A stretch of 64,000 nucleotides of DNA from Halorubrum californiense DSM 19288. Its GTDB lineage: Archaea; Halobacteriota; Halobacteria; Halobacteriales; Haloferacaceae. Below the pieces are notes generated by a model. That model was not told where the DNA came from and did not search any database. It was given only the letters and a program-made list of their open reading frames with translations. The first letter of the stretch is position 1. Each line of letters begins with the position of its first letter. Of the stretch, positions 49,568 to 64,000 are shown piece by piece. Both the position numbers and the translations under genes were made by a program. The DNA lies in contig NZ_AOJK01000025.1 of NCBI RefSeq assembly GCF_000336875.1, forward strand, positions 74,850 through 138,849, written 5' to 3'.

Positions 49568-50707
49568 CTAGATACCGAGTTTGAACACCGATTCCACATA
49601 CGCATCCTCTACGTCTTCGTAGTACGTGTGGATATACCGATGAATCGCTGCTCGACCTGACCCGTGTTCATGCCCCGTTCTATCACCGCGAAGATATTGA
49701 ACCCACAATTCAGGCATATTCGCTGTCACGCGGAACCACGTCGTGAACCAGTGCCGAGCATAATGTGGACTAATCGAGCGGAACTCATCCTCCACGCCAT
49801 ACTGGTACTGTGGATGCCAGTGCTTTGTCCATACGTGTCGCAGTGAATTGCGCCCTAACGGTTTCCCCTTCTGAGTAAAGAATACGTGTGGGTCACCGTT
49901 GTCTGGACGAATCAACAACCAATCGACCAGTACCCGCTGCGTCTCTCCATCCAGTGGAATAACCGTCGGCATCTTCCGTTTGTTTCCCGCATGCTCAGCA
50001 CCATCATCCGGTGGGATATACACGGCATTTGCGTAGTCCTCTAACTGGTCATGTGAGCCCATAGCCTCGTGACGTTGTCCGTCCCGACCGTCGAAGTGAG
50101 CCCGAACATCTGCATTCGAGAGGTGAAGTTCTTCAAGCCGAATATTCGACAGCTCTGTTGACCTCACACCAGTCTTTAATTGGAATACCGTGGCTGCACG
50201 CTCACCAATATGCTTAATTGACTTGACTTGCTCAATAATATCCTCTAACACGAGCTTCGGATAATCATCTGGTTCAGATTCCCGGAGTTCGTATTCATTC
50301 TTGGCGATGATAAACGGATTATAGTGCGTTGGGTGCTTGAACGCAGGCTTACCTTGTAGCCATTCGTATACCTTCTTCACATAATTGACCTTGTCCAGTG
50401 CGACTCCCTCATTCATTGACCTGCACAGATATTGAATCCAGTCCTTGACGTTCTTCACACTCGGCAAGGTCGGATGTCGCGTCGAATTCACCGACATCCA
50501 TTCCTGCCAGTCTCGGTACGCTCTGCGATAATGGTCTTTCGTGGTTTCCTTGAGTCGACGGTTACCGAGTATTTCGCGCTCGTAGTAATCGAAGATAGGC
50601 TCCCCCAACTCTCGCTCAATAGCTTCCGTCTGCGGTTGTAGTTCCAGAAGTGGGTCAGCCTCTGTGCCAAACTGAGCTGATGCAATCTCCTCTATGTCTT
50701 TATTCAT
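49568..50707 (-). CDS. int: Tyrosine recombinase/integrase
   Basis: A 379-residue site-specific recombinase with an N-terminal core-binding domain (YYEREILGNRRLKETTKDHYRRAYRDWQEWM, KVNYVKKVYEWLQ) and C-terminal catalytic domain. Catalytic residues visible: Arg in FQLKTGVRSTELSNIR, His/Arg in SISPHYARHWFTTWF, and a nucleophile Tyr in IHRYIHTYYEDVEDAY. It overlaps the upstream core-binding gene by 8 nt. It likely integrated the island, with the integration site perhaps near the chorismate mutase 3' end (not proven). Confidence 0.93.
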   Translation of the reverse strand: MNKDIEEIASAQFGTEADPLLELQPQTEAIERELGEPIFDYYEREILGNRRLKETTKDHYRRAYRDWQEWMSVNSTRHPTLPSVKNVKDWIQYLCRSMNEGVALDKVNYVKKVYEWLQGKPAFKHPTHYNPFIIAKNEYELRESEPDDYPKLVLEDIIEQVKSIKHIGERAATVFQLKTGVRSTELSNIRLEELHLSNADVRAHFDGRDGQRHEAMGSHDQLEDYANAVYIPPDDGAEHAGNKRKMPTVIPLDGETQRVLVDWLLIRPDNGDPHVFFTQKGKPLGRNSLRHVWTKHWHPQYQYGVEDEFRSISPHYARHWFTTWFRVTANMPELWVQYLRGDRTGHEHGSGRAAIHRYIHTYYEDVEDAYVESVFKLGI

Positions 50708-52976: not shown

Positions 52977-53840
52977 ATGTCCACGATACGCGATGAGACA
53001 TGGAATATCGTGCTTGAACAGATAGCTGAGAGAGGGGAATTCAGAATTTCCGACCTCCCATTTGAGGAAGGGTCCAGAGCGACCGTGCGGAGAACCCTAC
53101 GTGAGATGGAGTCGCACTCGTGGCTCACACGGGACTCGGAACACTCGTCGATTTGGCGTGTCGGTCCGAAGGCCGAACTGCTATTAAATATCTCACAAGA
53201 GGAGTTGAAAGGACCGGCGAGTAATGTAATTTCGTGGAGTACACAGGTCCACCCAGATGAAGTCCCGGAACTGATACGACCTCCACGACGGGAAAACCTC
53301 CGTCTGAAAAATCTAGTTGCTGAGGGTTACATTTCAGTGGATTGCTGTTCCTTTGAGATGTCATCGATACCTACTAGCGAATTTCGACGTATCCGGAGAA
53401 ATGCAGCCGCTAGCGAGGCAATAAGCGAACCTCATGCTGACTTGAAGGCGGTTGGAGGCTGGCTCCTCAGTCAGTTAGGGTGCGAATCAATTGAGTACGA
53501 AGCTACCTACCCGAGAGACGGTCGTATTGCTGATGTCGCCTGTCGGAATGCTGGTTTCTACGTTGAGGTGGGAATGGTGGAAGATGTGACCCGATTCTAT
53601 GAAAATTTGAACATCGATATCAAGACATCTGGACGCGAGATTCAGACGGTCTATCAACGGTATCCAGAGCCAACAGAGAAATCAAACCAAGTACAGGCGA
53701 TGTTCTACGTCCCATATCCTGTAGATGGTCCTGAAAAGCGTGAGTGGAAATCGGAAAGCCTCCACGCTTACCGATTCACCCTTGGAGAAAACAAACCACT
53801 CGTTTCTAACCGAAATAATCGATACTGGGGAGAAGAATAG
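52977..53840 (+). CDS. Winged-HTH protein with possible PD-(D/E)XK-like domain
   Basis: 287 residues. The N-terminal 75 residues form a wHTH (RDETWNIVLEQIAERGEFRI, SDLPFEEGSRATVRRTLREM, ESHSWLTRDSEHSSIWRVG). The C-terminal half has GGWLLSQLGCESIEYEATYP, RDGRIADVACRNAGFYVEVG, the Asp...Glu spacing of restriction-type nucleases but ending EVG rather than ExK. It may be a nuclease, a decayed one, or a regulator. Island codon use. Convergent with the UvrD operon, 90 nt between stops. Confidence 0.6.
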   Translation: MSTIRDETWNIVLEQIAERGEFRISDLPFEEGSRATVRRTLREMESHSWLTRDSEHSSIWRVGPKAELLLNISQEELKGPASNVISWSTQVHPDEVPELIRPPRRENLRLKNLVAEGYISVDCCSFEMSSIPTSEFRRIRRNAAASEAISEPHADLKAVGGWLLSQLGCESIEYEATYPRDGRIADVACRNAGFYVEVGMVEDVTRFYENLNIDIKTSGREIQTVYQRYPEPTEKSNQVQAMFYVPYPVDGPEKREWKSESLHAYRFTLGENKPLVSNRNNRYWGEE

Positions 53841-53930: not shown

Positions 53931-55682
53931 TCAGAGGAAAATTGGACACGGTTCATATCCATTCCACTTAGTAACGATGTACAACTGGTTAGCTGCACGA
54001 GTTACCGCGACATGGTATAGTCGTCGCTCTTCCTTCTCAACACCCGGTTTGTTCCGATACCGTTGTGCTTGCCGATACGAATATCCAGCCAGCAAGAGAA
54101 TACGGGCGCTCTCTTGCCCCTTTGCAGAGTGAATGGTTCCCACCCTAATTTGGTCCGGTCGAATATCGTGCGTGTTATCGAGCGCTTGTCGGAGAGCCTC
54201 GCGTCGGGTGTCATCAAGCTGAATATTGTTGAGAACCGATTCTGTGGACTCCGGAGAATCAAAAACCTCGTCGATTATATCCGGTGAATACAGAGCTCCA
54301 TCGTGTAGTTCCGGATACTCGTGATACCCTTCATCTGCTTTTGAATACTTAACGAGCGACCCGGAAATAGCATGTTCAACCCACGGATGGTCGATATCTG
54401 TAGTCGAGAGCAATTTCTCAACGTATCGAGGATAGAGTTGTTCACCTACAAGCCAGCGACGAAGTGTGTGCAGAATTTCAGGAGCTGGTGTTTCCCAATA
54501 CCAGAGACCACTTTTAAGTTCACTATCCGCCGGTACAATAGGCTGGTTCGGATATCCAAGGTCATTCAGGGCCTTTGCGACACGCTGTACGTCGAGGTTG
54601 GTACGTCCAAGAATCATCACTGACCTATTCCTTGGGAGGTCAGCCACCAGTTTCTCAACCACCGGATGGAGGTCTTCAGCAGTTCTTCCAGCTACCGGAA
54701 GTGAGTCTACAACTTCATCAACGTCTTCTCGATGCGAAGATAGCGTCTCATCGAAGTACCCGTATCCCGCGATGATTTCTTGCGCTTTTTCGACGATTTC
54801 GGGAGCACATCGCCAACTCTCAGACAACTCTATTGATTTATCACAGTAGGTCTCACGAAGGTATCGTCCTGTGCTTCCTCTGAATCCGTAGATGGCCTGT
54901 GCTTCGTCACCAGCAATGATGACGTGGTCAAACTCCTGACTGTCTCGCCAGAGCTTGTACAGTCGATACTGGAGTGGTGAAAGGTCCTGAAATTCATCGA
55001 TGACAAGCACCGAGCCTGAGGGAACCTTCCCCAATTTGATTGCACCGCGAACACAATCGTCGTGCTGGACAATCCCATTCGCTTGTTTCCACTCGTCCCA
55101 CTGTTGCATCACTTCAATTACGCTACTTTCAGGCGCTGCCACCTGTGCATCCATTCGCGAATAGGCCCGGTATTCTTCCGGCGTATTACCATACCCGAGC
55201 GCACGGAGGTAGTTGTACGCCCGAAGAATCTGGTTGGCTGCTGGGAGACTTTCTCTGCCAGCAGTCTCGTCTACCCTTGACGGAGGCACATACTTGAATT
55301 CGAATTGAGGCGCACATTCCTCAAAGAATTGCTGGAAGACCTCTTCATCAGACTCTCGGTCCATTACCACCAACCGGTCGAACTGGAACTTCTCGTCTCC
55401 GTAAACAAGATTGTAGCAGATACTGTTGAACGTACGGACCGTAATCCCGTCGTCATCGAATTCCCCTTCGTCTACTAGCGCGTCCAATCTCTGGACTCCC
55501 TCTATCAAATCAGGGTCCTCCAACCGTGTGATGATATCGTAGGTATTCGCCTTGTTGAACGAAGTGATGAGAATGTCGCTCGGCTCTATTACACCGGCCT
55601 TGAGTAGCTTCAAAAGGCGCTGATTACACTCCCACGACTTACCCGCACCAGCCATTCCAATTATTCGAGTTACAGTAGTCAT
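53931..55682 (-). CDS. UvrD/Rep-like superfamily 1 DNA helicase
   Basis: A 583-residue SF1A helicase. Motif I is RIIGMAGAGKSWECN (residues 7-20), II VLVIDEFQDLSPLQ, III IIAGDEAQAIYGFRG, IV/Va region SIELSESWRCAPEI, V VGTIHSAKGQESARILLLAG and VI RRLYHVAVTRAANQLYIVT. It is shorter than UvrD/PcrA (about 700 residues), lacking parts of the 1B/2B inserts. It follows the 466-residue gene by 2 nt, the last of three same-strand genes. In defence islands such helicases act with a partner nuclease or sensor. Specific role unknown. Confidence 0.9.
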   Translation of the reverse strand: MTTVTRIIGMAGAGKSWECNQRLLKLLKAGVIEPSDILITSFNKANTYDIITRLEDPDLIEGVQRLDALVDEGEFDDDGITVRTFNSICYNLVYGDEKFQFDRLVVMDRESDEEVFQQFFEECAPQFEFKYVPPSRVDETAGRESLPAANQILRAYNYLRALGYGNTPEEYRAYSRMDAQVAAPESSVIEVMQQWDEWKQANGIVQHDDCVRGAIKLGKVPSGSVLVIDEFQDLSPLQYRLYKLWRDSQEFDHVIIAGDEAQAIYGFRGSTGRYLRETYCDKSIELSESWRCAPEIVEKAQEIIAGYGYFDETLSSHREDVDEVVDSLPVAGRTAEDLHPVVEKLVADLPRNRSVMILGRTNLDVQRVAKALNDLGYPNQPIVPADSELKSGLWYWETPAPEILHTLRRWLVGEQLYPRYVEKLLSTTDIDHPWVEHAISGSLVKYSKADEGYHEYPELHDGALYSPDIIDEVFDSPESTESVLNNIQLDDTRREALRQALDNTHDIRPDQIRVGTIHSAKGQESARILLLAGYSYRQAQRYRNKPGVEKEERRLYHVAVTRAANQLYIVTKWNGYEPCPIFL

Positions 55683-55684
55683 GA

Positions 55685-57085
55685 TTAGACTGAGACATTC
55701 GGCGACAGCTCACCATCACCACTCCAATCTCTTCCATCCTCAGAGAGCGACTCCGGGTCGAAGTCCAGTCGAGAAGCACAAACCATCCATACAGAAGGTT
55801 TGGCATCCAACCCCTCAGCACAGAGTAATTTGTTCGCCGAAGTTCTGTTTCCGGGACGTTCAACGAGAACTCCATCCTGAAACAGAAGGTCAGAGATAGA
55901 CCTGTGAACCTCGTGGCGATGCTGGTCTACGAAGTTCTTGATGTACTGTCCCCCAACAACGACATACGGAACACCGTCGTCAGGCTCGATGTAGATTCCC
56001 CGCGTGTTGTTCGGTTTCCACCATTCGGTAGCCACATGCTCCGTCAGAGGCCCAATTTTTAGATTACTCATTTGAGACAAAAACAGCTCAATGAGCGCTT
56101 GCTCCTGCTCATTCTCGACCGTTTCCTCCTGAGCCATTTCATCCCAGTAATCGAACAACCACTCTGCTGCCCAGTCTGCCTCGAATCCACGAAGCATGCC
56201 TGAAAGACGGTTAGAGTATACATCGGCGATGACCCTCGCAGAGGGGTCATTTGCGAAGGCCACATCAAAGCGGACAGACCCAGATTCGCCGATGTTTCGA
56301 CGAGGGTCTGGCTTGAACGTCACCTCATACTCAGCATCATCGGCCTCGATACCCGTCGGAACAATAAGACGGACAGAGTCGGTCTGTTGCTTGAGGAAAC
56401 TAGCTGCGGAGGGCACAATATAATTCTGTATGTTCCCCTCATCGTAATCTTGTACCGCGTCAGCAAATGCGGATTCAATAGCTTTCCTAGCTGCTTCTGT
56501 CTCATCCGGAGTTAACCTCATAGCCCATTTGGGGACAAATTGATTGAGTTGAGCGGACGACCGAACCTTGTCAAATGCCTTGTATTCTGAAACGGCAATC
56601 TCTTCCTCACTAGTATCGACGATAGCAAAGAGAGGATTCTCATCTGCCGGAATAATCTGTAACTCCAAGTTTTTACCAACAGAGTAGGCAGGATACCTAA
56701 TATCAAGAATTTGGTCTTCCTGCGTCTCGTAGGCGTCTATCAGAATTGACGACTCACGACGGACACGCTGAGCAAGCCCAAGAGTAGGGTCCAATTCTTC
56801 AAGCGAAATGATTCGGTGAGCCTTGAGGTCTGGCTTGGCCACTACATCAGTTTCTTCGTCTTTTTGCCCATCGGTACCAGTGACTTCGGCAGATGGCTCT
56901 CGAAGCTCGTGAGAGGGCTCTGAATTAGTCTCTGGTTGCGAAGAATCTGCCACCTCCTGTGTAGAAGGGTGGTAACGTGACTGCGAATCTTCTGGCGACT
57001 GTCTCTTCTCATCAACTCCTCCATCCGTGAGGAGTCGAGACGGCGATACAGTTATACTGTCTGTAGATGTATCTATAGGTGACAT
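55685..57085 (-). CDS. Unrecognised partner protein of the UvrD-like helicase
   Basis: A 466-residue protein from ATG 57085. The first ~85 residues are Ser/Thr/Glu-rich and probably disordered. The rest is folded (ISLEELDPTLGLAQRVRRES, LDIRYPAYSVGKNLELQIIP, FADAVQDYDEGNIQNYIVPS, VRFDVAFANDPSARVIADVY) and ends with GVPYVVVGGQYIKNFVDQHR and SDLLFQDGVLVERPGNRT. I see no Walker, nuclease, TOPRIM or HTH motif. Two nt separate it from the helicase gene, implying tight co-translation. Confidence 0.8.
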   Translation of the reverse strand: MSPIDTSTDSITVSPSRLLTDGGVDEKRQSPEDSQSRYHPSTQEVADSSQPETNSEPSHELREPSAEVTGTDGQKDEETDVVAKPDLKAHRIISLEELDPTLGLAQRVRRESSILIDAYETQEDQILDIRYPAYSVGKNLELQIIPADENPLFAIVDTSEEEIAVSEYKAFDKVRSSAQLNQFVPKWAMRLTPDETEAARKAIESAFADAVQDYDEGNIQNYIVPSAASFLKQQTDSVRLIVPTGIEADDAEYEVTFKPDPRRNIGESGSVRFDVAFANDPSARVIADVYSNRLSGMLRGFEADWAAEWLFDYWDEMAQEETVENEQEQALIELFLSQMSNLKIGPLTEHVATEWWKPNNTRGIYIEPDDGVPYVVVGGQYIKNFVDQHRHEVHRSISDLLFQDGVLVERPGNRTSANKLLCAEGLDAKPSVWMVCASRLDFDPESLSEDGRDWSGDGELSPNVSV

Positions 57086-57118
57086 TGCTGGCTTTTTCTT
57101 CCTCAGGTAGCTGAGGTC

Positions 57119-57430
57119 TTATTCGGTAGGCCGGTGAGATTCCGAAACCGGGTGGAATCTTAGCGTTGAATCGCCGCTGACGACAATTCGAAACGTTCGC
57201 GCTTCCACGATATCACGAATCTCAGCAGGGAGTGTCCCTCGACCATAGCTGTCGATACTCCACTGGACAGTTGGCCCATCCTCCATAACCACCGTTAGGT
57301 CATGACCGGAGAGCTCGTCCCTGATACGGGGAGGGAGACGACCGCGTGGGCGGACTCTCTCCCCTTCTTTTGTCTTGAAGGTCACATCCGCCGTCACAGG
57401 CGGCAGACCACGACTGTACGTGTCGGCCAT
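57119..57430 (-). CDS. Small first gene of the UvrD-like helicase operon
   Basis: A 103-residue protein from ATG 57430 (MADTYSRGLPPVTADVTFKT). It has two related-looking halves: LPPVTADVTFKTKEGERVRP then GTLPAEIRDIVEARTFRIVVSGDSTLRFHP, with GRLPPRIRDELSGHDLTVVM between; the repeated LPP/AEIRD motif suggests an internal duplication, resembling small beta-rich DNA-binding or AbrB-type folds. A TATA-like TATAACC lies about 30 nt upstream. The next gene starts 33 nt later. Function unknown. Confidence 0.7.
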   Translation of the reverse strand: MADTYSRGLPPVTADVTFKTKEGERVRPRGRLPPRIRDELSGHDLTVVMEDGPTVQWSIDSYGRGTLPAEIRDIVEARTFRIVVSGDSTLRFHPVSESHRPTE

Positions 57431-57597
57431 ACTATGACAGATGACACGAGTGGTTATAGCTATTCGGGTTGACAACAACCCTATAGAGGCCGAAATAGAG
57501 CGTTTAGTGGTCTTTCCATACAGTAGCCAATTTCTCAAACAAGGTAAAGAATCTGTTAGTTAGTCGCTGTCCAAGCGTAATCTATACACTATTCATC

Positions 57598-57881
57598 GGC
57601 TCTGTTGAAACTATATTATTGTCTGAACCAGCTGGTCGCTAAGACTACCAATAAAACGAATTTTCGGGCGGCTACCACCCCGCCCGACTACCGGGGTAAC
57701 CCTACCATGAGGTACCATTGGTGGTTCCAAACGACAGAGGTTCCGTCTAATTTGGAACACACTGTGTACGCCGTAAGAATATATAAAGTGAGTTATAGGG
57801 TATCCTAGTGGGTCAGTTAGTACCCTGTATTGACCGTCACCGAGCCAGAATGAATCACCCGCTGAGGATTTCAACAGAGCC
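57598..57881. mobile_element. IS-end-bounded non-coding element (MITE-like), 284 bp
   Basis: GGCTCTGTTGAAA at 57598-57610 is the exact reverse complement of TTTCAACAGAGCC at 57869-57881. No transposase lies inside. The last 57 bp align with 48741-48797. I recall GGCTCTGTTGAAA-type ends for haloarchaeal IS5-group elements, which would make this a deletion derivative or MITE. Flanks share ATTCA but a clean target duplication is not visible. Confidence 0.6.
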
Positions 57882-57907
57882 AATTCACCCTATTATTGCG
57901 CGTGGAC

Positions 57908-57948
57908 GTACACCCACCCCCCTTCAGAAGCAAATTGGGGGGGTGTAC
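57908..57948. other. Strong C-rich hairpin in intergenic region
   Basis: GTACACCC-A-CCCC pairs with GGGGGGGTGTAC (57937-57948) around a 14-nt loop, with one bulged base. Further repeats of AGCTGAAGC/GCTTCAG type follow to about 58060, and no gene is visible between 57882 and 58224. It could be a terminator or part of a structured RNA. Confidence 0.5.
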
Positions 57949-58224
57949 TGGTTGAGAGCCTTACAGCCTCACAAAGCAAGTGACCTCGGCGGTGTCTCAC
58001 GGTTTTTTGGGAAAGCTGAAGCCTTCCAGCAGAGCTTCAGAGCCTTCCAATCCATCCATTCGGAGGCGTAAATTGTTCTATTGACTCTGGCAGGCAAAGC
58101 TCAATAAAGCTCTCAGAAGGTGGGTGTAAGCTCCCTCTTGCGCGCAATATGTAGAGAGGGCAATCTCCCGCCGCTAAGTTATCCTTTACACCCCCTTTGT
58201 GGGCGGAAAGGGACCGGCCACTCC

Positions 58225-58386
58225 TCAAAAATTGTCGTCTCTAACAAGGTGGTCTTTCCACCGTGTGATTGTTTGACGATACCTCTGACCGAAAATCTGA
58301 CCACATCCGGAACAGACCCAGTAGCCAGAGGGTTGTATCTGAAGCTCCGGTTTTTCATCCTGTTCTTCTGGACAATATCGAGCCAT
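58225..58386 (-). CDS. Small zinc-ribbon-like protein
   Basis: From ATG 58386, 53 residues (MARYCPEEQDEKPELQIQPS) with GYWVCSGCGQIFGQRYRQTI. The CSGCG knuckle plus an earlier Cys could hold zinc. Overlapping reading in another frame exists; this one is preferred for the CxxC motif. Low certainty because of the tiny size and no clear promoter. Confidence 0.4.
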   Translation of the reverse strand: MARYCPEEQDEKPELQIQPSGYWVCSGCGQIFGQRYRQTITRWKDHLVRDDNF

Positions 58387-58490
58387 ACCCACAAGAAGCG
58401 GAGAGAGTGCAAAGGAGCACCTCTGCCATGTGGACTCGGGAAGTTGAGATACGCCATACAACTATCATCCCAAATCTAGAATAGGTCTGT

Positions 58491-59105
58491 ATGAATATTG
58501 AGGGCTCAATCCAACAACTTGAACAGCGCTTCGTGGAGAGGCCTGCAAACTATCTTGTCGAAGCAGAGCTCGCTTTCGAGTTGAAACAGATTCTTAATGA
58601 CCAGCTCCAGTCCGCTCATCTCACAGGAAATCACGACTCAGGAAACGCACGCGGGAATATTCCAGACCATAGCGAGTACGCCGATGAAATCATCTCAACA
58701 ACGGGTATCGACCGTGCTCATTGTGAGGTGAGTGGGACAAATTTCGGTCTCGGGAGTAGTCAGATGAAGCTTGACCTCGTGCTTTTCGCTGATGAGGTAG
58801 AGCTCTCGCTGGAGGGTGGTAGTAAGAAGTTCAGAGTTGAGGACCTCGTCACTGCTGTCGAATTCAAGTTTATCAAGAACGCGAAGTACCTCCGAGAAGA
58901 TTCTAAGCGATATAATCTAATTGCTGACGACATTGACCGATTAGCTGGCTTACCCCATCACGTCGATACGTACTGTCTCGTTTTCGCGAACTTTGACCTC
59001 GCTCGTCGGCCAGACACGGAAGAAGCTCTCCAGAGCCTCAAATCCAGAAGCAGCCGAGTCGAAGTTCGGCATACACACCCGAAGACGGTGGATTTACTCG
59101 ACTAA
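58491..59105 (+). CDS. PD-(D/E)XK nuclease-like protein
   Basis: A 204-residue protein (MNIEGSIQQLEQRFVERPAN). It contains an Asp then Glu-x-Lys pattern: GSSQMKLDLVLFADEVELSL followed by VEDLVTAVEFKFIKNAKYLR, the order of restriction-endonuclease-like active sites (D...ExK). A helical N-terminus (VEAELAFELKQILNDQLQSA) supports this fold. Convergent with and overlapping by 12 nt the large helicase gene. Likely a nuclease component of the adjacent defence-like locus; not proven. Confidence 0.65.
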   Translation: MNIEGSIQQLEQRFVERPANYLVEAELAFELKQILNDQLQSAHLTGNHDSGNARGNIPDHSEYADEIISTTGIDRAHCEVSGTNFGLGSSQMKLDLVLFADEVELSLEGGSKKFRVEDLVTAVEFKFIKNAKYLREDSKRYNLIADDIDRLAGLPHHVDTYCLVFANFDLARRPDTEEALQSLKSRSSRVEVRHTHPKTVDLLD

Positions 59106-62100
59106 TGTTTCGTACCTTTTCAGCCAGTCACCGATTTCTCGTTTCCCAGTGGATTCATCTGGTAGAGGTACATCAAGCGTCAAACGACGCTGCGCCTCTG
59201 TCGCGTAGGTAGCAACGCGGGCATCGGAGACTGCAGATGGCTCGGTCCAGACCTTGGTGCCGTGTTCATCCAGTTGTCCAGCAACACGGACGACTTCGCC
59301 TTCAATGGTTCCGTCAAGTTCCTCTTTGAGTTCCGTGAGGAGGTACTCAAACAGCTTCTGGTGCGGGAGGGGAATCACCACGGAGGGATACCACTCCAAC
59401 ACCTCTGGGTCGAACGAGACCAACACCTCATCTGTATCAGCATATATCGCTTGTACCGTGTCTTCAGGAGGTTCACGAGATATTGGTGGGTTCGCATCTT
59501 CCGGGATGTTCAGGCGGTAGAGTTTCTGGTACGGAGCATCTTCATCTTCGGTTAGCTGGCGGTCGAGCATTTCGAACGTCCAGCCCTTATTCCGGAGAAC
59601 CTGACTCTGGGTAAAGAGCCGTTTTACCACGTCTGGGTCGATAAGGGGGTCGAACGGCCGGTCGGGATATCCGATACGACCAACGTCAGGATGCGAAGTC
59701 GTCCACCCGTAGAGCTTGGCTTCTTCGATTATATCCTCTGCATGGACCTCGTCGAGGTCCTGTGTCAATCCCACTTGCCGGACTTTCTGTTCCGCCTCTT
59801 TCGACTGTTCTTCCGCTTCAGAGGCGATATCCTCTCCCGACTTCACCGACTCTCCCATCGCGACACTCTGAACCTCGCCCTCTAACCCATCCAAAATCGG
59901 ACGTAGGGGTCCGACTGCCTGCTCGAATAGACTGATTCGCTCTCCAAGACGCTCATAGATGTCTTCCTCAACGGTATCGTCGTAGATGTAGTTCCACACG
60001 AGCACCTTCTCGTTTTTCTGTCCAATACGGTCAATTCGGCCAATCCGCTGTTCTACGACCTGAGGATTCCAAGGCATATCGTAGTTTATCATCGCATCAC
60101 AGGTCTGGAGATTCAACCCTTCACTCGCCGAATCCGTACAAACGAGAATAGTGAGGTCTCCGTCAGGGTCGGTGAATTCGCGCTTCACACGTTCCTTACT
60201 CACGCCGGACCATTCGTCCTCAGCAGCGTCATATATCTCGCCACCGCTGCCCGAGTACGTACCAACACCGTGGTGGCTGAGAGAGACCTTCTGCTTGATT
60301 GCATCAAGCGTGTCTGAATACTGTGTGAAGATAATAACCGTGTCCCGGGCTTTCGCGCTGAGCTCGTTCAGGTCTTGCATCAACTGCTCCAACTTGGGGT
60401 CCTCGGGAACGTCGTAGAGTTGCGCGATGAAGGCCTCTAATTCGCTCAGTTCGAACTGCCGGACTCGTTCACCAGCAGGACTGTTAGCTCCGATTTGGTC
60501 CACACGCAGGCCGTATTCTCGCCGAAGCACTTCCTCGCGACCGGCGATATCTCCTGTCTGAAGGTCGCTTTCTGAAACTCCCGATACGTCTTGAAGCTCG
60601 GAGCTGAGGTTCTCTCGGCGACGTTTGAGAGACTCCTCGATAGCATGGAGACTCGAAGTAAGGCGCTGCCGGTACGTAGTCATCACAAAGCCGAGAGCAG
60701 TTCTCTCTTTACCCTCCAAGAGCTTCTTCGACTGGTCGTATACGTCACTAATGTACGACTCTACACGGTCATAGAGTGGCTCAGCGTCTCCGAGTTCAAC
60801 CGACCGTGTTTCGATGTCCCGCCGAGGGATATTCTGGTTAAGAAGGCCCGCCTTCTGACACATGCGGAGGGTCTGCCGAGTGTTCCGGAATACCCGAGAC
60901 TTGACTGGGGTCGTCTCGTCTCCAAGTTCGAGAAGGAAATAGAGACTGTCGACAGAGAGATTCGAGAATTTGGTTTCCCAGTCACGAGTACCAAGCTTAC
61001 CAGTACCAAGCACACGATTTAGTTGGCGACGTTCGCTCAGCCCGAAGTCGCTATCATCGACCTGCTCCTCGACCCATTCAGCTACGTCCTCGTGCTCCTG
61101 TACAAATGATTGAATCATCCCCGCCCATGTACGGAGATGGGTGAGTCCCTCATACGGTTCGTAGGTCCACTTCGATGCGAGGTCGGGGAGAACTTCCTCG
61201 ACAGTCTCTGAACCATCCGCATCGATTTCGTCAAGCGCCTCTGCGAGGTCCTGCTGCATCTCGAAATACGTGTCAAACGACTCGCGGTCGTTCCACCCGT
61301 CGGGGAGGTCGCAGAGACGCAGGAGGTCGAATAGCTCAGTAATTTCGAGCTGCATCGGCGTCGCCGTCAACACGTAGTTACACACCGTGTCGTTCTGTAA
61401 CTCCGTGAGTAGCTCGTAGAGATTCGTTCCCTCGCGACCGTGGTGAGCCTCGTCGACGAGCGTCAGGTCCCACTCGAAGCTATCCTTCGGCGGGTCGCCC
61501 GGATGCTCCTCCTGCCAGTGAACGGAGGGTGAGAACATCCCCATGTTCCCTGAGCGCCGTGCGGTATGCCACGAGGCAAGTACCACTGTCGGCTCGTCCC
61601 GGTCAGAGACGAACTCACCGATGTGCGAGTCTTCCCACGCGTCGATGGTCTCATAGTCCGACAGGGAGTGTTCGATGCCGTAGGCGTCCCGCAGGACGCG
61701 CTGTGCGCCGCTGTACTCGTAAGAGTAGGCGTTGATGTTGAACTTCTCAAGCAGCTCCTCCTGCCACTGTGGCTGGACCGTAGCGGGCACGAGAAGCAGG
61801 GCGTCGCTCACCTCACCGATGGTGAGGAGTCGAGAGAGAGTCAGTCCGGCCTCGATAGTCTTCCCGAGGCCGACCTCGTCACAGAGGAGGAGACTCTCGG
61901 GATAGATGCTCGCCGCCGTGTCTGCGATGACACGCTGGTGAGGCCACGGCTCAATCGAACTGATGTCCTCGGCGATGTGCATCGCACCGGGGAGGAGCTC
62001 ACGCTCGTTGGCGATACGGGTAACCGTCGCCTCGGAGGCAGGCGGCTCGCTCGATTTCTTCAGGCGTTCGACGTGCTCCTCGACTTCCTCGTCGGACTCG

Positions 62101-62726
62101 GGCTGCCAGTCGAGAATGTCTCGCTCGATGGCATCGTCAATATTCGTGACCTCGACATCGTCGTGCTCCTCGTTCCAGAGACGCTCGAAAGTCTTCACGT
62201 CCTCCTCGACGTACTCGTTCTCGACCTCGTCCCACGAGCGGTGGACTTTGAATCGCTCGTAGTTGCGATACCACGCGTTGTAGGTCTCATTGATGCTTCC
62301 CTCGAACGTGATTCGATTCCCGTCGGCGTCGGTCGCGATGCCGAGCTTGGGATGGAAGATTCCCGAATCGGAGTTATTCCGCGGTTCCCCGATTTTTAGC
62401 TGAAGCCGTCCCTCGTCCAGCATTTGGGCGATGAGGGCGAGCCGTGACTCGCCTTCCTCGGAGAGGGGAGCGTCGTCGGTGAGAACCGGTTTGTTCTCTT
62501 GACTTAGGCGCTTTGAGGCGATGATGCGGATTTCACCATCAGATTCGAATGCGGATTCGACTCCCTGTAGCGCGTCGGCGAGGTTCTGGAGGCTCAGGTA
62601 GCCGGCGAGACGGTCGTACTGGACAGAATGTGCGAGAAGTGGGCGATAGAAGTCGCCTACAAGGGTCTGATTACCCCGAAAGTTGCTCTCATAGATTCGG
62701 TTCCAGTTCAAATTCTGAAAAGGCAT
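59094..62726 (-). CDS. PLD-like/SNF2 helicase (phage-defence-associated type)
   Basis: A 1,210-residue protein. Residues about 1-200 are a phospholipase-D-like domain (RIIASKRL; FHPKLGIATDADGNRITFEG, SINETYNAWYRNYE). A SNF2-type SF2 helicase follows: WPHQRVIADTAASIYPESLLLC, DEVGLGKTIEAGL (283-295), LTLVDEAHHGRE, VLTATPMQ, TVIIFTQYSDTLDAIKQ, LVCTDSASEGLNLQTCD and RIGRIDRIGQKN. A C-terminal ~250 residues are unassigned. It is 6 nt downstream of the DUF1156 methyltransferase gene. This is the helicase type found in methyltransferase-linked anti-phage loci. Confidence 0.88.
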   Translation of the reverse strand: MPFQNLNWNRIYESNFRGNQTLVGDFYRPLLAHSVQYDRLAGYLSLQNLADALQGVESAFESDGEIRIIASKRLSQENKPVLTDDAPLSEEGESRLALIAQMLDEGRLQLKIGEPRNNSDSGIFHPKLGIATDADGNRITFEGSINETYNAWYRNYERFKVHRSWDEVENEYVEEDVKTFERLWNEEHDDVEVTNIDDAIERDILDWQPESDEEVEEHVERLKKSSEPPASEATVTRIANERELLPGAMHIAEDISSIEPWPHQRVIADTAASIYPESLLLCDEVGLGKTIEAGLTLSRLLTIGEVSDALLLVPATVQPQWQEELLEKFNINAYSYEYSGAQRVLRDAYGIEHSLSDYETIDAWEDSHIGEFVSDRDEPTVVLASWHTARRSGNMGMFSPSVHWQEEHPGDPPKDSFEWDLTLVDEAHHGREGTNLYELLTELQNDTVCNYVLTATPMQLEITELFDLLRLCDLPDGWNDRESFDTYFEMQQDLAEALDEIDADGSETVEEVLPDLASKWTYEPYEGLTHLRTWAGMIQSFVQEHEDVAEWVEEQVDDSDFGLSERRQLNRVLGTGKLGTRDWETKFSNLSVDSLYFLLELGDETTPVKSRVFRNTRQTLRMCQKAGLLNQNIPRRDIETRSVELGDAEPLYDRVESYISDVYDQSKKLLEGKERTALGFVMTTYRQRLTSSLHAIEESLKRRRENLSSELQDVSGVSESDLQTGDIAGREEVLRREYGLRVDQIGANSPAGERVRQFELSELEAFIAQLYDVPEDPKLEQLMQDLNELSAKARDTVIIFTQYSDTLDAIKQKVSLSHHGVGTYSGSGGEIYDAAEDEWSGVSKERVKREFTDPDGDLTILVCTDSASEGLNLQTCDAMINYDMPWNPQVVEQRIGRIDRIGQKNEKVLVWNYIYDDTVEEDIYERLGERISLFEQAVGPLRPILDGLEGEVQSVAMGESVKSGEDIASEAEEQSKEAEQKVRQVGLTQDLDEVHAEDIIEEAKLYGWTTSHPDVGRIGYPDRPFDPLIDPDVVKRLFTQSQVLRNKGWTFEMLDRQLTEDEDAPYQKLYRLNIPEDANPPISREPPEDTVQAIYADTDEVLVSFDPEVLEWYPSVVIPLPHQKLFEYLLTELKEELDGTIEGEVVRVAGQLDEHGTKVWTEPSAVSDARVATYATEAQRRLTLDVPLPDESTGKREIGDWLKRYETLVE

Positions 62727-62732
62727 GCGTGC

Positions 62733-64000
62733 TCAGAACTCGTCTAGAGTGGTCCGAGAGCTTTCCACATCGTCCGGACTCTGAAGGACAGCAATGTTTA
62801 TTTCCAGCAACTCGCCGGTTTCTCCCGAAACTAAATTCTTCAAGAGGTCGTAATCATCGTGTTGCTCCGGCAGCACTTGTAGTAACCCTTCTATGGTACT
62901 CTTGAAAGCAGAGTCATTCTGCAAGTCACGTTCCTTCAACCAGTTCCATGCAAAGTCGCTTCCTTTGGTGCTCAATACATCTAATGCCGCATGGACTGCG
63001 TCGATTCTATTCTCGAATGACTGCTCTCTCGGGTCAACAGGATACTTTCTGGCTCGTCTTTTGACCCCGCTTTCCAATTCAGAGTAGCTCTGTACACGGC
63101 CCTGATGTCCAGATAAGACCACGTCATCCCTACTTTTGCTCCAGATTTTGGTATCGCTCTTTACCTCATCAATCTGGACTCCAACACCGAGGCCAAGTTG
63201 TCGTGCCTCATCGTATGGGATTGACTGCTGCTCATAGACCAACCATGAAAGAATGTACCACGTTGATAGGGAATCTACATCGTCGAGGGACCCAGCCAGC
63301 TCCCGTTGTATCAGGACCTCGGTGACTGCTGTCCTTGCCTCACGGAGCGCTTCTCGCGGTCGAACCAGCTCGTCCTTATCATCGACCACGGGATAGTTCT
63401 CCGTGAACACTCGTAACGTGGGGCCGAATGCGCTGATTATTGTATCCGTCTTAGTCAAGTTGTGTTCAGATTCGAGCAAGGAACTTGCCTTCTCGCGGGC
63501 TACCTGTCTGGTTTCATCCTTTATGTCCCGCCAAAGGGTTGGCATTCGGTCGTCGGGCTGAGTAGTAGGCTTCCTACAAGTTAGAAGAAGGGTACTATCT
63601 GCGGAAGCGTCTTGTTGTACACCAATCCGCTGTGGCATTTCGCTGGTAATGGTGTGGGTTGCCGTTATATTGAACCCGGAATTTATGATAGACATAGTGA
63701 GCGAGTCCCACGCAGCAATTTCCTTGTCTGTAAAGTAAATTGTGAGAACACCTCCCTCTTCGAGGACTCGGTACGCCTCGCCGAAGATGTCACTCATTCT
63801 ATTCTCGTATTTATTCCGTGCCACTTCACGCTTAGAGCCAGACTCCGTATCTGATACCAAAGAGGGGTTCTCAACAGCCTCGTCTTCTTTGTTAGTTTCT
63901 GGTGTGCTGAACTCTTCAGGATAGATGTCCCCCAGATACTCGCGGAACCAGACATAGAACGCATCGGCGACCTCGGAGTAGATGATATTGTCTCCATACG
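62733..64000 (-). CDS. DUF1156-type adenine-specific DNA methyltransferase, C-terminal part
   Basis: The frame is open to the right edge (further residues YGDNIIYSEVADAFYVWFRE precede the first internal candidate start), so this is the C-terminal ~420 residues of a larger protein of perhaps 900-1000. YGDNIIYSEVADAFYVWF, MSDIFGEAYRVLEEGGVLTIYFTDKE and ITSEMPQRIGVQ match DUF1156 methyltransferases. The second half (STWYILSWLVYEQQSIPYDE; NWLKERDLQNDSAFKSTIEG) is helical. Upstream SAM motifs lie outside the window. Pairs with the PLD-SNF2 helicase gene. Confidence 0.85.
   Translation of the reverse strand, partial: YGDNIIYSEVADAFYVWFREYLGDIYPEEFSTPETNKEDEAVENPSLVSDTESGSKREVARNKYENRMSDIFGEAYRVLEEGGVLTIYFTDKEIAAWDSLTMSIINSGFNITATHTITSEMPQRIGVQQDASADSTLLLTCRKPTTQPDDRMPTLWRDIKDETRQVAREKASSLLESEHNLTKTDTIISAFGPTLRVFTENYPVVDDKDELVRPREALREARTAVTEVLIQRELAGSLDDVDSLSTWYILSWLVYEQQSIPYDEARQLGLGVGVQIDEVKSDTKIWSKSRDDVVLSGHQGRVQSYSELESGVKRRARKYPVDPREQSFENRIDAVHAALDVLSTKGSDFAWNWLKERDLQNDSAFKSTIEGLLQVLPEQHDDYDLLKNLVSGETGELLEINIAVLQSPDDVESSRTTLDEF

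What the first reader, a model, noticed from the sequence alone, without database searches (positions are those of the whole stretch)
53931..57430. Candidate undescribed defence operon: small duplicated protein, 466-aa orphan, UvrD-like helicase
Three genes on one strand, spaced 33 and 2 nt, sit in an AT-rich integrase-bearing island next to methyltransferase/helicase defence genes. Gabija also pairs UvrD with a partner, but that partner is an OLD ATPase-TOPRIM nuclease, and the 466-residue protein here shows no such motif. This could be a new helicase-dependent anti-virus or plasmid system.
Basis: partly seen in the sequence, partly recalled or inferred. Interest (0 to 1): 0.75.

Follow-up and report, generated by a model that had tools for sequence, protein, structure and literature searches.

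The report
Captured replication helicase in defence locus
In a salt-loving archaeon, a three-gene operon that looked like a brand-new antivirus system is a cut-down copy of the DNA-replication machinery of archaeal plasmids and viruses, with the primase lost, kept beside a known type of antivirus gene cluster; its own function is untested.

Summary
In detail: 103-, 466- and 583-aa genes, spaced 33 and 2 nt, in a ~38-kb low-GC island beside methyltransferase/helicase genes. The 466-aa 'orphan' is a divergent relative of an unnamed protein encoded immediately upstream of (or fused to the primase before) the same SF1-helicase clade in 14 of 14 haloarchaeal replication modules (profile-profile P = 2.8e-10, score 80.5 against at most 19.9 in 99 shuffles). 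The helicase nests in that clade (99/98). Those 14 modules all have a primase; the trio has none. The trio recurs once, in Halorarius halobius, under purifying selection (dN/dS 0.10-0.30), at the edge of a conserved 16.4-kb block holding a complete Hma (BREX-related) locus; block similarity stops at the helicase stop codon, and the integrases differ. A third Hma (DL31 plasmid, HmaA 86%) lacks it. So this is a primase-less replication-type helicase cassette kept with Hma. Whether it defends (my choice, about 50%) or replicates/maintains the unit (about 30%) is untested. It is not Gabija. It is a new variant of a known kind, of moderate interest.

The parts
57119..57430 (-). 103-aa duplicated small protein, predicted DNA-binding pseudobarrel (B3/AbrB-like); probable operon regulator
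   Evidence: 80% id in Halorarius; AF2 pLDDT 71, two beta-beta-alpha-beta halves; best PDB fold match is a plant B3 domain, prob 0.99, TM 0.51, E 0.02; other B3 and LlaJI.R1 N-domain hits are weaker
55685..57085 (-). 466-aa helicase partner: ~130-aa low-complexity N-terminus, then the domain shared with haloarchaeal replication modules (res 135-447), ending in a winged-HTH-like region
   Evidence: hhalign prob 96.8, P 2.8e-10; 73% id in Halorarius; dN/dS 0.16
53931..55682 (-). 583-aa SF1 (UvrD/Rep-type) helicase, all motifs present (GMAGAGKS, VIDEFQD, GDEAQAIYGFRG, HSAKGQE, YHVAVTRA)
   Evidence: PF00580, PF13361; PHROG_1967 7.8e-60; tree nested in replication-module clade 99/98
57887..58205 (.). 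conserved non-coding, inverted-repeat-rich element upstream of the trio (candidate origin, operator or ncRNA)
   Evidence: 73% id to L050:8958-9489 (that match also covers the Zn-finger ORF) with no shared ORF in the element itself; alifold z about -2.7 to -3.0 on both strands; no Rfam match
58225..58461 (-). 78-aa small ORF with a CxxC zinc-finger-like motif, conserved in Halorarius
   Evidence: phmmer 2.4e-24 between the two loci
58491..59105 (+). 204-aa protein, PD-(D/E)XK-like motif (LDLVLF..VEFKF), likely auxiliary nuclease of the Hma locus
   Evidence: motif read from sequence; 86% id in Halorarius; no family hit
59094..62726 (-). HmaA: PLD (HKD)-SNF2 helicase, 1210 aa
   Evidence: PDLC00659 HmaA 2e-54, NF042964 2.4e-83; 89% id in Halorarius
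62733..64000 (-). HmaB: DUF1156 N6-methyltransferase, 957 aa, continues past the window; then DUF7680 (211 aa) and HmaC DUF499 ATPase
   Evidence: NF042963 2.4e-12; extended ORFs; HmaC 6e-86; DUF499, DUF7680

Best explanation
The trio is a captured, primase-less version of the replication module of haloarchaeal plasmids and viruses, kept as an optional accessory cassette at one edge of an Hma (BREX-related, DUF499-centred) defence locus. SHOWN by sequence comparison: homology of the 466-aa partner and the helicase to the partner and helicase of replication modules; absence of any detectable primase; purifying selection; linkage to Hma and not to an integrase. INFERRED: the partner's C-terminal winged-helix-like part binds DNA or replication intermediates and delivers the 3'-5' SF1 helicase, which, having no primase of its own, unwinds or derails replicating invader DNA (or feeds it to the HKD helicase or 204-aa nuclease of the Hma locus) instead of copying it; the 103-aa DNA-binding protein autoregulates the operon, perhaps through the conserved 300-bp element. 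Identity part about 0.88; defence/Hma-accessory role about 0.5.
For: Partner-family homology 286 columns, P 2.8e-10, score 80.5 (reversed 16.6, best of 99 shuffles 19.9). Partner present in all 14 other genomes that have this helicase, adjacent to it or fused to the primase. Primase in 14/14 modules, none in either trio island. Helicase inside the module clade 99/98, sister to the primase-partner fusion type 93/90. dN/dS 0.10-0.30; dS 1.15-1.27 for partner and helicase against 1.08 for HmaA and 1.40 for the 204-aa gene, so a shared history. Syntenic block 53930-70327 from the trio through HmaC, ending at the helicase stop codon; integrases unrelated. Hma identified by PADLOC HmaA/B/C. Hma = DUF499-centred BREX-related defence, with auxiliary nucleases alongside (PMC12839542).
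Against: No functional data. Only two trio loci are known and they descend from one event, so co-location with Hma is a single observation. A closely related Hma (DL31 plasmid phalar01) exists without it. Primase-less replicons of this helicase type exist (pEXT9a-like plasmids, PMC3543421), so loss of the primase does not prove loss of replication function. The 466-aa fold could not be modelled (pLDDT 37).
Confidence: 0.5

Rival explanations
1. The trio is a working minimal replication or maintenance module: the 300-bp element is an origin, the 103-aa protein or the 466-aa partner binds it and loads the helicase, and the host supplies the primase. It keeps the Hma-bearing unit replicating on excision or on a plasmid.
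For: Anatomy (conserved non-coding repeat-rich element, DNA-binding protein, partner, helicase) resembles a replicon; relatives are all replication modules; primase-less pEXT9a-like plasmids carry the related helicase with a non-homologous replication protein (PMC3543421; profile test negative).
Against: Integrases are not shared between the two islands; the shared block is the Hma locus plus the trio, not an integration or partition set. No partition gene noticed nearby.
Confidence: 0.3
2. A hitch-hiking relic of an old plasmid replication module, no longer doing anything selectable.
For: Primase lost; a short inverted-repeat element inserted upstream in the window copy.
Against: All three ORFs intact in two genera with dN/dS 0.10-0.30 and all helicase motifs kept.
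Confidence: 0.08
3. A Gabija variant (UvrD-like GajB plus a divergent nuclease partner).
For: GajB models hit the helicase (best 1.2e-24).
Against: PHROG_1967 hits far better (7.8e-60); the partner is not an OLD/TOPRIM protein and is homologous to a replication-module protein.
Confidence: 0.02

Closest known systems
Haloarchaeal plasmid/provirus replication modules (partner - SF1 helicase - primase; PHROG_1967 helicase family)
   Same: same helicase clade (25-29% identity by BLASTP), homologous partner in the same position and orientation, overlapping or nearly overlapping genes
   Different: no primase; extra ~130-aa low-complexity N-terminus on the partner; 103-aa DNA-binding protein in front; sits in a chromosomal Hma locus
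pTN2 / pEXT9a-like Thermococcus plasmids and pMETVU01 (SF1 helicase + replicase)
   Same: related SF1 helicase with a large replication protein immediately upstream; pEXT9a-like ones lack the prim-pol domain
   Different: replicase C-terminal domains show no profile match to the haloarchaeal partner; free plasmids
[quoted passage not shown]
   Same: the neighbouring locus is a complete HmaABC with an HKD-SNF2 helicase
   Different: the trio is not a core Hma gene and is absent from DL31 Hma; DUF7680 where Type-2 BR has DUF3780
Gabija (GajA-GajB)
   Same: UvrD-like helicase with a partner gene
   Different: no OLD ATPase-TOPRIM nuclease

Membership tests
Haloarchaeal replication module | SF1 helicase of the PHROG_1967 / halo-MGE clade | tested here: met
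   7.8e-60; nested in clade 99/98
Haloarchaeal replication module | partner protein directly upstream of the helicase | tested here: met
   hhalign prob 96.8, P 2.8e-10 with negative controls; gap 2 nt
Haloarchaeal replication module | primase (PriS-like, PrimPol-like or DnaG-like) next to or fused to the pair | tested here: not met
   present 14/14 elsewhere, none in either trio island
Haloarchaeal replication module | autonomous replication | not testable with these tools
   needs an ARS assay
Gabija | GajA: OLD-family ATPase with TOPRIM nuclease | tested here: not met
   no Pfam or PADLOC hit in the 466-aa protein; it is homologous to another family
Gabija | GajB UvrD-like protein | tested here: inconclusive
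   1.2e-24, but the phage SF1 helicase profile fits far better
Hma / BR system (neighbour locus) | HmaA helicase, HmaB DUF1156 MTase, HmaC DUF499 ATPase in one operon | tested here: met
Hma / BR system (neighbour locus) | trio as a constant component | tested here: not met
   absent from DL31 Hma, HmaA 86% identical
B3/AbrB-type DNA-binding pseudobarrel (103 aa) | duplicated beta-beta-alpha-beta pseudobarrel fold | tested here: inconclusive
   moderate AF2 model (71), best PDB match B3 TM 0.51, E 0.02
Anti-virus defence system | protection against a virus or plasmid | not testable with these tools
   none

The most novel reading that the evidence does not exclude
A new helicase-based anti-mobile-element system made by domesticating a plasmid/virus replication helicase and its loading partner: primase removed, DNA-binding regulator added, 300-bp target or ncRNA element alongside, working with or beside Hma.
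Probability: 0.3. Interest if true: 0.75.

Novelty: new variant of a known kind. Interest (0 to 1): 0.45.

Why it matters
It points out a so far unannotated helicase-partner family common to haloarchaeal replication modules and shows that such a pair can leave its primase and settle in a defence locus. If it defends, replication machinery of mobile elements is being turned against them; if it replicates, it would be a clue to how Hma-bearing islands move. Either way the operon is small, intact and testable in Haloferax volcanii.

Tried and rejected
Gabija membership (no GajA). Weak 466-aa matches in 392 genomes: the four inspected regions were out-of-frame or unrelated ORFs. IMG/VR scans with the 466-aa protein, helicase, partner alignment and one partner: no relatives. 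Phage and plasmid records: no 466-aa match in plasmids; none for the partner in phages or plasmids. Thermococcus replicase C-domain as homologue of the partner: negative. AF2 of the 466-aa protein with two sequences: unusable, so no fold search. Conserved 300-bp element as a known RNA: no Rfam hit; structure signal equal on both strands, so RNA not claimed. A 21-nt match of the element in G342: chance, inside coding DNA. Island att repeats: none of 13 nt or more. First column-shuffle control failed to parse and was repeated.

Full report
OBSERVATION. An integrase lies at 49568-50707. The 583-aa protein is an SF1 UvrD/Rep-type helicase with all motifs; the 466-aa protein matches no library family significantly.

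RECURRENCE. A scan of 84,980 species genomes found one relative of the 466-aa protein: Halorarius halobius ZY10 (73% identity). All three genes are there in the same order (80/73/78% identity). None was found among 170 other genomes of the window's family or 145 others of the Halorarius family; 391 other genomes of the order gave only weak matches, of which the four inspected were spurious. The trio is rare. The pattern-based scan can miss distant relatives.

WHAT THE PARTNER IS. Helicase relatives at 29-35% identity (by the search tool's alignments) occur in 14 other genomes of the order. In each, a 320-440-aa ORF lies directly upstream of the helicase, or a homologous domain is fused to the C-terminus of the primase just upstream (one of the 14, L055, is a gapped contig where only fragments are seen); a profile of it finds exactly those 14 genomes. 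Each also has a primase gene adjacent (14/14): DnaG-like (PF08275; phage DNA-primase families), PrimPol-like (PHROG DNA primase/helicase) or a PriS-like type recognised by its invariant DxD and H motif residues only. These are virus/plasmid replication modules. The 466-aa pair against the partner profile gives prob 85, P 6e-6, and with the fused members added prob 96.8, P 2.8e-10, score 80.5 over 286 collinear columns; the reversed profile scores 16.6 and the best of 99 column shuffles 19.9. The helicase tree puts the trio inside the module clade (99/98), next to the primase-partner fusion type (93/90). The likely history is therefore loss of the primase part of a fusion: the 466-aa protein has ~130 low-complexity residues where the primase would be. 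That last step is inference.

WHAT THE 103-AA PROTEIN IS. A duplicated beta-beta-alpha-beta protein; a moderate model (pLDDT 71) best matches a plant B3 DNA-binding domain (prob 0.99, TM 0.51, E 0.02). DNA binding is likely, not shown.

CONTEXT. The neighbour locus is a complete Hma (BREX-related) system: HmaA (PLD-SNF2 helicase), HmaB (DUF1156 MTase, 957 aa), DUF7680, HmaC (DUF499) (PMC12839542). Window 53930-70327 (coordinates extended past the window end) is syntenic with Halorarius from the trio to a small gene beyond HmaC; similarity stops at the helicase stop codon. dS of partner and helicase (1.15, 1.27) is like that of HmaA and the 204-aa gene (1.08, 1.40), dN/dS 0.10-0.30: one shared history under purifying selection. 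The integrases of the two islands are unrelated. DL31 plasmid phalar01 has a Hma with HmaA 86% identical and no trio. So the trio is an optional accessory of this Hma lineage, not of an integrase.

A conserved 300-bp non-coding, inverted-repeat-rich element (57887-58205) and a small zinc-finger-like ORF lie upstream. Structure scores are modest and similar on both strands; it may be an operator, origin or RNA.

HOW IT LIKELY WORKS. Partner binds DNA through its winged-helix-like end and delivers the helicase. Without a primase it either acts against invader replication beside Hma (0.5) or still serves as a minimal replicon using host primase, as in pEXT9a-like plasmids (0.3; PMC3543421). The two-genome association is one evolutionary event and cannot decide.

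VERDICT. Real, conserved and partly explained: a new variant of a known kind (replication module without primase, parked in a defence locus). Not Gabija, not an unrelated new partner.

Noticed in passing
57595-57884: A ~290-bp element with 13-nt terminal inverted repeats (GGCTCTGTTGAAA) and an imperfect 8-bp target duplication sits between the conserved 300-bp element and the trio; 12 similar ends elsewhere in the genome and in 10 haloarchaeal plasmids: a MITE or IS-end insertion absent from Halorarius.
   Followed up: partly
L050:6364-8433: Halorarius carries a Pycsar-like set (PycTM effector PF18967, two nucleotide cyclases) between the 204-aa gene and the trio, absent in the window.
   Followed up: partly
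58491-59105: 204-aa gene convergent with hmaA has a PD-(D/E)XK-like motif and no family match; likely auxiliary nuclease of the Hma locus, dN/dS 0.06.
   Followed up: partly
52977-53840: 287-aa wHTH protein convergent with the helicase; Halorarius has a different protein there sharing only the N-terminal wHTH (36% over 69 aa). C-terminal part looks PD-(D/E)XK-like.
   Followed up: partly
L066:13054-14808: HEC-06-like DUF262 gene (PADLOC 2.9e-87; Orf5 1.3e-115) in the same island, beyond the window.
   Followed up: no
L051-L064: An unannotated helicase-partner family (no Pfam or significant PHROG match) present in every haloarchaeal SF1 replication module found, sometimes fused to the primase.
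   Followed up: partly
62733-65606 (window coordinates extended): HmaB is far more diverged (55% aa) than HmaA (89%), DUF7680 (87%) and HmaC (86%) between the two islands: the methyltransferase, which sets specificity, has been swapped or evolves fast.
   Followed up: no
L107, about 8.1-8.9 kb: Halorarius holds a second, rearranged fragment of the 204-aa / zinc-finger region and of the 287-aa gene end.
   Followed up: no
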